Source: Armatimonadota bacterium
GTDB lineage: Bacteria; Armatimonadota; UBA5829; DSUL01
DNA: 64,000 nucleotides
Direction: 5' to 3'
Assembly: GCA_020846715.1 (NCBI GenBank)
Contig: JADLDK010000005.1
Span: forward strand, 1 to 64,000
The position numbers were made by a program, and so were the translations under genes. The notes under the pieces are model-generated. The model ran no database searches and had not been told where the DNA came from. It saw nothing but the letters and a program-made list of their open reading frames with translations. Positions within the stretch are counted from its first letter, which is position 1. Every line of letters starts with the position of its first letter. Of the stretch, positions 19,209 to 63,148 are shown piece after piece.

Positions 19209-19972
19209 GCGAAAGCGGTAAACCCGCGGCGTCGAGAGTGCGTGAGCATTCTGAGTATCTCTTCAAGCAGTTCGCACAGACTAAAGACCCGGAGCTGCGC
19301 GCGGAGCTGGTCAACGCTCACCAGAATCTTGTGCACTATCTGGCCGCAAAATTTGCCAACCGGGGAGAGCCGCTGGAAGACCTCATCTCCGTGGGCAACA
19401 TAGGGCTGGTTAACGCCGTTGATCGATTTGATCCGAATCGTGGGATCAAATTTTCCACTTTTGCCACGCCCACTATTGTCGGTGAGATCCGCCGCTACTT
19501 CCGCGACAAAGCCTGGAGCCTGAAGGTTCCTCGGCGGCTGCAGGAGCTGAACCAGACGGCCTCGCGCGCCTCCGCGCGGCTTCTGCAAAAGCTGGGACGC
19601 GCTCCAACCATTGCTGAGCTGGCGCAGGAAATTCAAGCATCTGAAGAGGATACTCTAGCGGCTCTTGAACTGGCCAACGCCTATGAAACAGTGTCCATAG
19701 ACGCGCCGCAGTCTGGCGCTGACGGTTCCTCAACCACTCCCGGGGACACGATCGGATCGGAGGATGAGTCGCTTGGGAAGCTCGAAGCCTACGACGATCT
19801 GACGCGAGCGCTGGAGAGTCTCGGTGATCGCGAGAGAAGTATTCTGTATTACAGATTCTTTAACGATATGTCACAGACTGAGGTGGCGAAACGGCTGAAC
19901 ATCTCTCAGATGCACGTGTCGCGTCTGCAAAGCAAGGCGCTCAAACGGCTCAAGCAACTTCTGACAAAGTGA
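19205..19972 (+). CDS. SigB/SigF/SigG-type RNA polymerase sigma factor
   Basis: A 255-residue sigma-70 group 3 factor. Region 2 reads LISVGNIGLVNAVDRFDPNR then KFSTFATPTIVGEIRRYFRD, region 3 follows (VPRRLQELNQ), and region 4 contains the helix-turn-helix MSQTEVAKRLNISQMHVSRL. The ATG overlaps the anti-sigma stop (ATGA) and the stop overlaps the next gene (GTGA), so expression is tightly coupled. It probably directs a general stress or envelope regulon, held in check by the two upstream proteins. Confidence 0.95.
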   Translation: MSESGKPAASRVREHSEYLFKQFAQTKDPELRAELVNAHQNLVHYLAAKFANRGEPLEDLISVGNIGLVNAVDRFDPNRGIKFSTFATPTIVGEIRRYFRDKAWSLKVPRRLQELNQTASRASARLLQKLGRAPTIAELAQEIQASEEDTLAALELANAYETVSIDAPQSGADGSSTTPGDTIGSEDESLGKLEAYDDLTRALESLGDRERSILYYRFFNDMSQTEVAKRLNISQMHVSRLQSKALKRLKQLLTK

Positions 19973-60228: not shown

Positions 60229-60627
60229 ATGCCACACCCACAGAAGCGTCTTATGCCGGTGGAAGACGTGCTGCGTCTGCTGGACGAGACTGTAACCGCG
60301 CTCAGTCAGTGTGCCGTCAATTTCGCCGCCCATCTCGATAGCGACGAGAGCGAGTTGCCATGTCTTTATCAGTGGCATAAGCTGGAAAAGGCGGCCAGAG
60401 CGCTTCAGCAGGCGCGAGAGATCGAACACGACTCGCTCGCGGCGGTATCAGTGCTTAACGCTGAAAAAGAGATGATCAGGCGAGCGGCTGCGTTGCTGGA
60501 CTGCGTGAAGATAGCAGAAGAGGGCCGCGACGCTACTGCGCCAAATCTGCGCAATCCCGGACGCAAAACGCGCAAACACCCCTGGGGGAGAAACTCAGAA
60601 GATGAGTGGACAGCTGAAGAGGCTTGA
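60229..60627 (+). CDS. hypothetical helical protein
   Basis: A 132-residue mostly helical protein with no signal peptide and no family I recognise. Residues about 10-60 and 65-95 form amphipathic helices; the C-terminal 30 residues are basic and probably disordered. AGGAG two to six bases before the ATG supports translation. Its last 26 bases overlap the acylphosphatase gene. Confidence 0.7.
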   Translation: MPHPQKRLMPVEDVLRLLDETVTALSQCAVNFAAHLDSDESELPCLYQWHKLEKAARALQQAREIEHDSLAAVSVLNAEKEMIRRAAALLDCVKIAEEGRDATAPNLRNPGRKTRKHPWGRNSEDEWTAEEA

Positions 60628-60892
60628 AGCGGTAGTCGAAGGCCGCGTGCAGGACGTGGGCTACCGGTATTTCGTCCAGATGGCGGCCATAGGACTGCAT
60701 GTCAATGGGCGTGTCTCAAATCTGCCGGACGGCAAGGTGAAGATCGTCGCGGAGGGAGATGCGGACACCCTGGAGCAGTTGATCTCTGCCTTGTGGCAGG
60801 GGCCGCGCTCGGCTGTCGTGGACCGGGTGCGCGAGCAGTGGAGTGAGGCGACGGGAGAGTTTCGGGAGTTCGCCATAGATATCGAAGCGTGA
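60602..60892 (+). CDS. acyP: acylphosphatase
   Basis: A 96-residue acylphosphatase hydrolysing carboxyl-phosphate bonds. VEGRVQDVGYRYFVQ holds the catalytic Arg, and GRVSNLPDGKVKIVAEGD holds the catalytic Asn. Full length. ATG at 60602 lies within the end of the upstream hypothetical gene. Confidence 0.95.
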   Translation: MSGQLKRLEAVVEGRVQDVGYRYFVQMAAIGLHVNGRVSNLPDGKVKIVAEGDADTLEQLISALWQGPRSAVVDRVREQWSEATGEFREFAIDIEA

Positions 60893-60985
60893 TGGCGGCG
60901 CTGACAAGTGCGGGTTTTGTGGTGAGCTGACCTGTAGGACCCCGATTTATCCGTTATGCGCGCGGCTCAGGAGTACGGCGGAACA

Positions 60986-61014
60986 TTCGAGTTGGGTGAA
61001 TCGTTAGATATATA
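60986..61014 (+). promoter_or_regulatory. promoter of the candidate small RNA
   Basis: TTCGAG, 17 bases, TATATA. Transcription would start near 61021. Confidence 0.4.
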
Positions 61015-61020
61015 GCACAC

Positions 61021-61180
61021 AGCGCAGAGCAAATCGCCTGCTCAGAAGACTCACGTCCTCTTGCGACACAGCATTGCGGTTGCGTGAGTTTGCGAAGTCT
61101 TGCTGAGACGGATGTTTTACGCGGTAGACTAGCTTCTGAGAGGCTCCGGTCGAGATGAGTTCTCGGCCGGTTCTTTTTTG
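61021..61180 (+). ncRNA. candidate small structured RNA, about 160 nt
   Basis: A free-standing transcript is implied by a promoter upstream and a strong intrinsic terminator at its end. CTCAGAAGACT (61041-61051) can pair with AGTCTTGCTGAG (61096-61107, one bulge) or, through CTCAGAAG, with CTTCTGAG (61133-61140). Inside, CTCACG...CGTGAG and GCGAC...GTTGC extend a hairpin at 61051-61089. No riboswitch family recognised; nothing coded downstream on this strand. A 6S-like RNA cannot be excluded. Confidence 0.5.
61146..61180 (+). terminator. strong intrinsic terminator of the small RNA
   Basis: A 10-bp stem with one G-T pair (CCGGTCGAGA with TCTCGGCCGG, loop TGAGT) runs directly into TTCTTTTTTG. 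Confidence 0.85.
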
Positions 61181-61236
61181 TACCGGGCTATGTCTGGACA
61201 AAAGCCGCTGTCTGTGACAGCCGGCGTCTGATAAGC

Positions 61237-62664
61237 TCAGCTCGCACGGCGCTGACGGCTCGAGAGGATGTTTTGAGCTTCGCGGTACTTGACCACAGTC
61301 CGGCGAGCAACATTCAGTCCGCGCTCCTGCAAAATCTCGGCTATCTCCTGATCGGACAACGGCCGCCGCTTGTCTTCCTGCGCAATAATCTCCTCAATGA
61401 GGTCTTTGATGGAAATGGACCCGTCAAAGAAGGGATCGAAGCTGACCACCTCCTCACTGGGGAGTTGCATCCATTTGTTGGCGGTCGCTCGGCTGACGGT
61501 GGACTCGTGCAAGCCCAGGGCTTTGGCCACCTGTGTTCGCGTCAACGGGCGCAGGAAGTTTTTCTGGGATGTCTCGATGTAACCCTGCTGGTATTCAACG
61601 ACGTATTTCGTGATAGCCCGCAGAGTCTTGCGCCGCTGGAGAATGCTGCGGATAAACGCATCAGCCCGCTCCACGTACTCCACAATGTGCCTGCGCTCAT
61701 CGGACGAATAGTTTCTGGAGCCGCCGTTGCGAATATTGGCGTAGGCTTCGCGATATTTGTTGTTGAGGGCGAGAGACTGGTTTTCTGTGATGAGCACATC
61801 GATCTCGTACCCCGCCATCGTCCGGCGCACGATTATATCCGGCTGCACGGACTGCGCGTTCTCGGGGTTTGTGTCCCAGGGCAGGCGGAAGCATTCGCCC
61901 GGATGCGGGGACAACTCTTCCCGGATGAACTTCAATGCGCTCTGGACCGTCTGCTTGTGCACTTTCAGATGATGCGCCAGCCGGGTGATTTTCCGTGAGT
62001 GGGTGTCGGCCCAGTAGTCTTCAACCATACGCAGAGCCAGGCGGCTGAGCGGAGTCTGCTCATCCAAAGCCCGGAGCTGAATCGCCAGACACTCCTGCAC
62101 CGAAGTCGCCCCGACTCCAGCGGGGTCAAAAGTCTGAATCAGGTTCAGCACCAGCCTGGCCTCGGCCGCTGTTACCTTGAGGTCCGCCGCTATTTCCTCC
62201 AGCGAACCTTCGAAGTAGCCCGTGCCGGTGATGCTGTCGATAATAGCCTCACCAATCGGGAAGCTCTCTTTGTCGCCCGTCGCGCGGAGTTGATCCAGCA
62301 GGTGGTCGTGGAGCGTATGTTGTGAGCGCAGATTCGCGATGGGGTCAAACTCATCGTCCGCATGACCGACAACGCCCACATACTCCACGTCCGGAGCCAG
62401 CCAGTCCCGCCAGTCAATGTCCTCTGATGCGTCTGCCTTCTGCTGCTCCTGCTTGTACGGACAGTTGACGCACAGCTCGCGTGGCACTCCGCACGCGCTG
62501 CAGATATCGTCATCAGGGCGTTCGATAGCGGGGTTGTCAGCTAACTCCTGCTCGATCATCTCCGTCAGCTCCAGCGTAGAGCACGCCAGAACGTTGTTGG
62601 CCAGAATGATCTTCGGATCAATCTTTTGACTTAGAGTTTGCCTAAGGCCTTGTCTCAGTAGCAA
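61237..62664 (-). CDS. rpoN: RNA polymerase sigma-54 factor with a Cys4 insertion
   Basis: A 475-residue sigma-54. Region I is RQTLSQKIDPKIILANNVL with the activator-contacting Gln/Leu pattern; the core-binding domain follows; the C-terminal RpoN box is ARRTVVKYREAQNI. Between region I and the core are Cys55, Cys58, Cys65 and Cys68 (CSACG and LCVNC), a zinc-finger-like CX2CX6CX2C that I do not know from model sigma-54 proteins. TTG at 62664 is preferred (GAAGAGG eight bases upstream); reading further upstream adds 33 unrelated residues. It is expressed from a strong promoter with a long leader. Confidence 0.95.
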   Translation of the reverse strand: MLLRQGLRQTLSQKIDPKIILANNVLACSTLELTEMIEQELADNPAIERPDDDICSACGVPRELCVNCPYKQEQQKADASEDIDWRDWLAPDVEYVGVVGHADDEFDPIANLRSQHTLHDHLLDQLRATGDKESFPIGEAIIDSITGTGYFEGSLEEIAADLKVTAAEARLVLNLIQTFDPAGVGATSVQECLAIQLRALDEQTPLSRLALRMVEDYWADTHSRKITRLAHHLKVHKQTVQSALKFIREELSPHPGECFRLPWDTNPENAQSVQPDIIVRRTMAGYEIDVLITENQSLALNNKYREAYANIRNGGSRNYSSDERRHIVEYVERADAFIRSILQRRKTLRAITKYVVEYQQGYIETSQKNFLRPLTRTQVAKALGLHESTVSRATANKWMQLPSEEVVSFDPFFDGSISIKDLIEEIIAQEDKRRPLSDQEIAEILQERGLNVARRTVVKYREAQNILSSRQRRAS

Positions 62665-63148
62665 GGTGCCAGCCTCTTCACTTGATACTCCGGACAGCAG
62701 TGTGCGGATTTCAAAAAAGTCGACCCAGTCTCTACGGCCGCAGTCCGCAAGACAGAACGCCAAGTCTGCACACAGAGGCAGGCTCAGCCGGAAACAGCCT
62801 TTTCAACGGCTGGTAAGCGGGGACGAATGACACCGGTCTCGCGAGCGGGCAACCGAAGCGGCAGTCGTGTCTGGAGAGGCACTCAGAAGCAGTCATTATC
62901 CCAGTTATGACTGCAGTCCCAGCGAATGCCCCTGTTACGCGCCGTCTTTCCGGCTCAAGATGTCCTGCTTACCACATGGTCTCAGCGTAGAGTCGGCGCA
63001 GGAGCTTATCGGAATTGTACCGCTCCCCCGAGCCTGTGTCAAGTTTGCGCGCTCTTGCTCGCGCTCAGAAACGGGTCTATACATTCCCCCGTCTACAGTT
63101 TTTGTTCCATATTTGCGTGGCGCGCCAAACGACGTGACTGATGTGCGG
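62665..63148 (-). other. rpoN upstream region with long structured leader
   Basis: No gene seen. The rpoN transcript would start near 63007 and carry a leader of about 340 bases. It contains GCAGTCAT/ATGACTGC (62889-62914, perfect, loop of ten), GCCG/CGGC around 62941-62954, and CAGCC/GGCTG with TTT after it around 62795-62815. I recognise no riboswitch. Confidence 0.5.
63014..63042 (-). promoter_or_regulatory. rpoN promoter
   Basis: On the minus strand: TTGACA, exactly 17 bases, TACAAT, the best sigma-70-type match in the window. Confidence 0.8.

What the first reader, a model, noticed from the sequence alone, without database searches (positions are those of the whole stretch)
60986..61180. 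Candidate undescribed small RNA between acyP and rpoN
A promoter-like TTCGAG-N17-TATATA is followed by about 160 bases that fold with at least two alternative pairings and end in a textbook terminator (10-bp stem, TTCTTTTTT). No gene follows on this strand before the converging rpoN gene, so the terminator needs a transcript of its own. The alternative pairings of CTCAGAAGACT are unusual for a passive spacer.
Basis: partly seen in the sequence, partly recalled or inferred. Interest (0 to 1): 0.65.

Follow-up and report, generated by a model that had tools for sequence, protein, structure and literature searches.

The report
Stress-type small RNA in Armatimonadota
The gap between two unrelated genes holds what looks like a real, undescribed small regulatory RNA gene with its own stress-type promoter, a nearly unchanged 5' end and a stem kept by matching mutations in a related bacterium, which suggests that this little-studied phylum uses small RNAs in its stress response.

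Summary
The observation largely holds: the acyP–rpoN gap carries a plus-strand terminator with no gene for it. The reading (own small RNA) is supported; the promoter and 'alternative pairing' parts are not. The decisive evidence is a non-syntenic homologue in another genus of the same family (G002, Armatimonadetes WAS_Bin_18). Both loci share GGAAC-N17-CGT at identical spacing, then AGCACACAGCGCAGAGC(N)AAT (20 of 21 bases), a closing stem with two compensatory changes, and a terminator 0–1 nt after that stem. It is exact in 2 of 291 Armatimonadota genomes, matches no Rfam family and is not 6S, which lies elsewhere. The same promoter architecture precedes a σE-like sigma gene and a group-2 sigma gene in all three family genomes tested, and 14 of 22 examined copies of a second, multicopy, anti-Shine–Dalgarno small-RNA family. 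Most likely: an ECF-sigma-dependent, about 165-nt trans-acting sRNA whose exposed 5' end is the seed (like RybB/MicA or FoxJ). Transcription, sigma factor and targets are inferred; a target test failed the stricter control. New member of a known kind.

The parts
60980..60984 (+). GGAAC, predicted -35 element of an ECF-type promoter
   Evidence: same offset and spacing in the G002 homologue; same element before 14 of 22 examined copies of a second sRNA family and before two sigma genes in each of three genomes
61002..61005 (+). CGTT, predicted -10 element, 17 nt after GGAAC
   Evidence: G002 has CGTC
61012..61014 (+). predicted transcription start (inferred)
   Evidence: 8-10 nt after the CGT; in the sigE-like gene the CGT lies 8 nt before an ATG in three genomes (sequence)
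61014..61034 (+). 5' leader AGCACACAGCGCAGAGCAAAT, candidate seed
   Evidence: 20 of 21 identical in G002; mean unpaired probability 0.64 against 0.29 for the rest of the RNA
61036..61046 (+). 5' arm of closing stem P1
   Evidence: two compensatory pairs against G002, 9 of 10 pairs kept
61047..61134 (+). variable inner domain, predicted two branches
   Evidence: not alignable with G002
61135..61144 (+). 3' arm of closing stem P1
61146..61179 (+). intrinsic terminator (stem 61146-61170, T-rich tail)
   Evidence: G002 has its own terminator at the same place relative to P1
60602..60892 (+). upstream neighbour acyP (PF00708), not part of the RNA
61237..62763 (-). converging neighbour rpoN (sigma-54), not part of the RNA

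Best explanation
A free-standing small RNA gene (about 61013-61179, roughly 165 nt) transcribed by an ECF (extracytoplasmic-stress) sigma factor. The RNA begins with a largely exposed 5' leader that is nearly invariant between two genera. A covarying closing stem packs the variable middle into one domain set directly against the terminator, leaving the leader free. Most likely mechanism: on envelope or similar stress the ECF sigma turns the gene on, and the leader base-pairs with the start regions of target mRNAs (perhaps of secreted or envelope proteins) to lower their translation, like the sigma-E sRNAs RybB/MicA and FoxI/FoxJ. Shown by sequence: promoter motif, leader, stem covariation, terminator, non-syntenic homologue. 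Inferred: transcription, which ECF sigma (candidate: the sigE-like sigma / anti-sigma / HtrA-type operon on contig C45), leader as seed, targets, sign of regulation.
For: Homologue in G002 at an unrelated locus. Promoter + leader exact in 2 of 291 phylum genomes, expected rare. P1: 9 of 10 pairs kept, two by double change; a stem of this length in 12 of 5000 and 2 of 5000 shuffles. Terminators in both. GGAAC-N15-18-CGT before 9 of 50 sigma genes examined against 4.6% in shuffles, six of the nine being two complete orthologous trios; the sigE-like one is followed in G000 by a zf-HC2 gene and a trypsin-like protease gene. Fourteen of 22 examined copies of another terminated short-RNA family carry GGAAC-N17-CGT. 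Leader mostly unpaired.
Against: No expression data. Only two homologues; absent by pattern from G001 (98% complete) and G003 (69%) of the same family. The motif alone is common: 1 found with 2.0 expected in the window, and GGAAC-N16-TCGTY is no more frequent than its reversed control in G000 (11 against 10). The promoter matrix from the second family gives the G002 site only 1.5 bits. Leader-target test not significant against dinucleotide shuffles (5 of 120 in G000, 29 of 120 in G002 as good). No Hfq match in G000. Folding without the terminator is unremarkable.
Confidence: 0.68

Rival explanations
1. It is a small RNA with this promoter, but it acts by binding a protein (sequestration or scaffold) rather than by base-pairing through the leader.
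For: A closed structured domain is kept by compensatory change; predicted targets are not significant against dinucleotide shuffles.
Against: The most conserved part is the linear, mostly unpaired leader, not the structured domain.
Confidence: 0.18
2. The conserved block is a DNA element (operator or end of a mobile element) and no stable RNA is made.
For: The block includes the promoter; G002 and G000 are not syntenic.
Against: Conservation runs into a stem with compensatory changes and to a terminator at the same relative place in both; the block is single-copy at full match in each genome.
Confidence: 0.07
3. A distant terminator / 3' UTR of acyP.
For: The terminator lies 254 nt after the acyP stop on the same strand.
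Against: The G002 homologue is next to other genes, and the DNA after acyP in G001 shows neither leader nor terminator-promoter set on inspection.
Confidence: 0.04
4. A small protein gene, on either strand, rather than an RNA.
For: The - strand frame 61004-61201 (65 aa) is open, and the leader reads FALRCVLY in an open antisense frame in both genomes.
Against: The shared stretch is conserved at nearly every base, wobble positions included, and beyond it the frames share nothing evident; the one + strand frame of at least 20 codons lying wholly inside the RNA (24 aa) has no evident counterpart in G002.
Confidence: 0.02

Closest known systems
FoxI / FoxJ, sigma-E-dependent sRNAs of Fusobacterium nucleatum (PMC11005410, passages read)
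   Same: Free-standing sRNA outside Proteobacteria; promoter shares -35/-10 boxes with rpoE; FoxJ is about 156 nt; more than one sRNA in the response.
   Different: Their seed is a C-stretch and FoxJ keeps its synteny; here the leader is AGCACACAGCGCAGAGC and synteny is not kept. No sequence comparison was made.
RybB / MicA, sigma-E-dependent sRNAs of enterobacteria (named in passages; 5' seed of RybB recalled)
   Same: ECF-type promoter directly in front of an exposed conserved 5' end (proposed), intrinsic terminator.
   Different: No Rfam match at gathering score; Hfq not found in G000; targets unknown.
Pos19, RpoE-dependent sRNA of Rhodobacter sphaeroides (PMC5036791, passages read)
   Same: ECF-dependent RNA gene of similar size (219 nt) with its own promoter.
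   Different: Its promoter is TGATCC(N15)GCGTA and it encodes a small protein; here no convincing small frame.
CcsR1-4 of Rhodobacter sphaeroides (PMC8625941, passages read; CCUCCUCCC motif recalled), for the second family only
   Same: Repeated stress-linked small RNAs with a CCUCC-type motif.
   Different: CcsR are processed from the 3' UTR of ccaF1; the copies seen here appear to have individual promoters and terminators. Not claimed to be related.

Membership tests
ECF/sigma-E-dependent trans-acting sRNA (functional class) | own ECF-type promoter shared with sigma genes of the same organism | tested here: met
   GGAAC-N17-CGT conserved in both homologues and before two sigma genes in each of three genomes, spacing 17-18; sequence evidence only
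ECF/sigma-E-dependent trans-acting sRNA (functional class) | discrete terminated transcript without a coding frame | tested here: inconclusive
   terminator and no conserved frame; transcription not testable here
ECF/sigma-E-dependent trans-acting sRNA (functional class) | transcription depends on the sigma factor | not testable with these tools
   needs expression data
ECF/sigma-E-dependent trans-acting sRNA (functional class) | seed base-pairs with target mRNAs | tested here: inconclusive
   better than mononucleotide shuffles (0 and 2 of 120 as good), not clearly better than dinucleotide shuffles (5 and 29 of 120)
6S RNA (RF00013) | match at gathering score | tested here: not met
   no match in the window; the genome's 6S is at C61:27456-27651, 52.3 bits
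any Rfam 15 family | match at gathering score | tested here: not met
   0 matches in the whole window; none for the RNA in L003, the G002 locus

The most novel reading that the evidence does not exclude
This family of Armatimonadota has an RNA arm of its ECF stress response made of at least two unrelated sRNA families under one promoter type: a single-copy structured RNA (this window) and a multicopy, partly tandem set of tiny RNAs with an anti-Shine-Dalgarno 5' end. Copies of the second family carry either the ECF-type promoter or a sigma-70-like promoter in front of the same 5' end, so the same translational repressor would be wired to both housekeeping and stress programmes.
Probability: 0.45. 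Interest if true: 0.65.

Novelty: new member of a known kind. Interest (0 to 1): 0.5.

Why it matters
Library searches found no paper on small RNAs of this phylum (none on the subject; none of the listed papers names Armatimonadetes). If true, an envelope-stress sRNA arm, known from Proteobacteria and shown in Fusobacteriota (PMC11005410), also exists in Armatimonadota, with RNAs that match no Rfam family in the scans done here. It would support the idea that such arms arise repeatedly, and the loci give concrete probes for testing it.

Tried and rejected

Riboswitch-like switch of CTCAGAAGACT: 5.3 kcal/mol worse than the best fold, and the best fold of the prefix ending before the competing arm does not form it either.

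Conservation at the acyP-rpoN junction: in G001 acyP and rpoN lie far apart (2.49 Mb and 0.29 Mb), so synteny could not be used.

Other weak blastn matches to the 5' part of the RNA: viewed (matches inside query positions 25-75 only); no promoter-plus-terminator context except G002. Of the seven 3-mismatch leader matches, one search printed the surroundings (one, L085, was printed at the wrong place and not re-read); they, and the G238 match (viewed), were read as chance.

Leader targets: complements with up to 2 mismatches (16 in G000 and 6 in G002 apart from the gene itself) were viewed. Two lie at the start of secreted-looking proteins (L242 in G000, L253 in G002). A sampled test (223 genes of G000, 124 of G002, only those with a good Shine-Dalgarno match) did not survive dinucleotide shuffles. 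Two of the sampled stretches (L284, L258) hold those two sites, so the top-target lists are not independent of them. The higher count of complements in G000 than for the reversed pattern (127 against 42) was not followed, since the control differs in CpG content.

Viral contigs by rpoN: nothing. Plasmids: nothing.

Promoter matrix: it ranks the window site first of all positions on both strands of the 64 kb, but it includes spacer columns and gives the G002 site only 1.5 bits, so I lean on the plain motif and its position instead.

Full report
What is there. Between acyP (60602-60892, +, PF00708) and rpoN (61237-62763, -, sigma-54 domains) lies a + strand terminator, stem 61146-61170 with tail TTCTTTTTT. 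No plausible + strand gene lies between. The region with terminator folds with z -2.93 (1 of 200 shuffles as good); without it z is -1.55 (16 of 200), so folding energy alone says little. Rfam gives nothing at gathering score in the window, and only chance-level matches at E up to 10 for the region (lowest E 1.4). The genome's 6S RNA is elsewhere (C61, 52.3 bits).

The homologue. blastn of 60980-61185 against 60 relatives plus the own genome gave one relative with E below 0.001: G002, same family, other genus, 25 bases at 96%, E 1.7e-4. An exact pattern in named genomes identifies that contig as JAGVUD010000188.1, Armatimonadetes bacterium WAS_Bin_18; the other five exact matches of that 18-base pattern are in unrelated bacteria and were not followed. 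Read on the right strand, the G002 locus is also a small-RNA-like gene between a methyltransferase gene and a glycosidase gene, with a terminator. No acyP was found in G002 (80% complete).

Anatomy shared by both. (i) GGAAC, 17 nt, CGT, 9 nt, then AGCACACAGCGCAGAGC(N)AAT with identical spacing. Searched with up to 3 mismatches over 24 specified bases in 291 Armatimonadota genomes, it is exact in G000 and G002, has one 3-mismatch match in G238, read as chance, and is absent from the other 288. In 28 genomes of the class the leader alone at up to 3 mismatches gives 9 places in 8 genomes, only these two exact. (ii) A closing stem P1, 61036-61046 with 61135-61144: in G002 9 of 10 pairs are kept, two by double change (C-G to U-A, A-U to G-C), one by single change, and the outermost is broken. 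A stem of this length between the two ends of the body occurs in 12 of 5000 (window) and 2 of 5000 (G002) dinucleotide shuffles. (iii) The terminator begins 0-1 nt after P1. (iv) The part inside P1 is not alignable; between leader and terminator there are 111 nt in the window and 71 nt in G002. In the window RNA the leader has mean unpaired probability 0.64 against 0.29 for the rest.

Promoter class. GGAAC...CGT is the usual form of ECF promoters (recalled; compare the shared -35/-10 boxes of foxI, foxJ and rpoE in PMC11005410, passages). Sigma70_r2 genes of three family genomes: 52 found, 50 examined (two in G001 not fetched). GGAAC-N15-18-CGT lies within 600 nt upstream of the domain in 9 of 50, against 4.6% in mononucleotide shuffles (2.3 expected). 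Six of the nine are two sets that look orthologous and are complete in G000, G001 and G002. One is a group-2 sigma gene, with GGAAC-N17-CGT. The other is a sigE-like ECF gene, where the CGT lies 8 nt before an ATG; in G000 it is followed by a zf-HC2 (anti-sigma type) gene and a trypsin-like (HtrA type) protease gene. Its spacing is 18, 17 and 18 in G000, G002 and G001, so it is only a candidate for the sigma that reads the RNA promoter.

Against over-reading the motif: GGAAC-N17-CGT is found once in the window with 2.0 expected, and GGAAC-N16-TCGTY is not more frequent than its reversed control in G000 (11 against 10), though it is in G001 (21 against 9) and G002 (25 against 11). Its weight comes from position and conservation.

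A second family under the same promoter. Of the 57 sites, 7 have a terminator-like hairpin within 260 nt: the window RNA, its G002 homologue, one in an open frame (L149), one that belongs to a further RNA downstream (L188), and three beginning AGCTTCCCACCCTCCTT. That 17-mer with up to 1 mismatch is present 23 times in the four genomes of the family (6, 8, 6, 3) and once each in 9 of the other 287 genomes; the reversed control gives 10 matches, none in the family. Of the 23 places 22 were held as DNA: 14 have GGAAC-N17-CGT with 11-15 nt between the CGT and the 17-mer; several others have TATAAT-like boxes instead. The copies printed are followed by terminator-like hairpins; some copies are tandem, about 175-265 nt apart; and no Rfam small-RNA family matches the 14 loci of this family scanned. 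CCCUCCUU is complementary to a Shine-Dalgarno sequence. The family is not in the window (0 matches at up to 3 mismatches). It shows independently that this promoter type stands before short terminated RNAs in these genomes, and its position agrees with a start about 8-13 nt after the CGT.

Mechanism. Most likely an ECF-sigma-induced RNA that uses its 5' leader as a seed. Duplex energies of the leader with start regions against mid-gene regions (223 genes in sampled stretches of G000 plus the window, 124 of G002) are better than for mononucleotide shuffles (0 and 2 of 120 as good) but not clearly better than for dinucleotide shuffles (5 and 29 of 120). The apparent preference for signal-peptide genes disappears with the dinucleotide control. 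So the targets are open; the strongest single predictions encode secreted-looking proteins in both genomes, but those stretches were chosen with the sites known. Hfq was found in G001 and G002 but not in G000 (G000 is 94% complete).

Limits. Two sequences only; absent by pattern in G001 (98% complete) and G003 (69%). No expression data. Library searches for small RNAs or ECF sigma factors in Armatimonadetes/Armatimonadota: 0 papers; 1, unrelated; no listed paper names the phylum; 1, unrelated; no listed paper names the phylum. For these I saw search listings only.

Noticed in passing
L215, L221, L225, L229, L232 (G000); L213, L219, L184, L227 (G001); L214, L224, L234 (G003); L216, L222, L226 (G002); not in the window: A second, multicopy family of tiny RNAs: AGCTTCCCACCCTCCTT (anti-Shine-Dalgarno) 5' end plus terminator, 23 places in the 4 genomes of the family, some in tandem, with either GGAAC-N17-CGT or TATAAT-like promoters; no Rfam small-RNA match.
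   Followed up: partly
L119 (G000 C45), L118 (G002), L123 (G001): A sigE-like ECF sigma gene with GGAAC-N17/18-CGT so close that the CGT lies 8 nt before an ATG in all three, suggesting an autoregulated, nearly leaderless mRNA; in G000 zf-HC2 and trypsin-like protease genes follow.
   Followed up: partly
L100 (G000), L098 (G002), L099 (G001): A group-2 sigma factor gene with GGAAC-N17-CGT several hundred nt before the sigma domain in all three genomes, implying a long 5' UTR and a sigma cascade.
   Followed up: partly
L178, L179, L187 (G001): GGAACATTTCCA...GTTCGTCTCTCGGATAATCCTTGAC occurs three times in G001, two of them about 96 nt before frames for secreted-looking proteins beginning ...SWD(D/Q)W: perhaps a repeated ECF promoter of a paralogous family.
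   Followed up: no
G000, whole genome: No Hfq match in the window's genome (94% complete), while both relatives searched have one; it may be an assembly gap.
   Followed up: no
window 19307-19516 (+): A further sigma-70-type gene (Sigma70_r2, group-3-like by eye) lies in the window itself.
   Followed up: no
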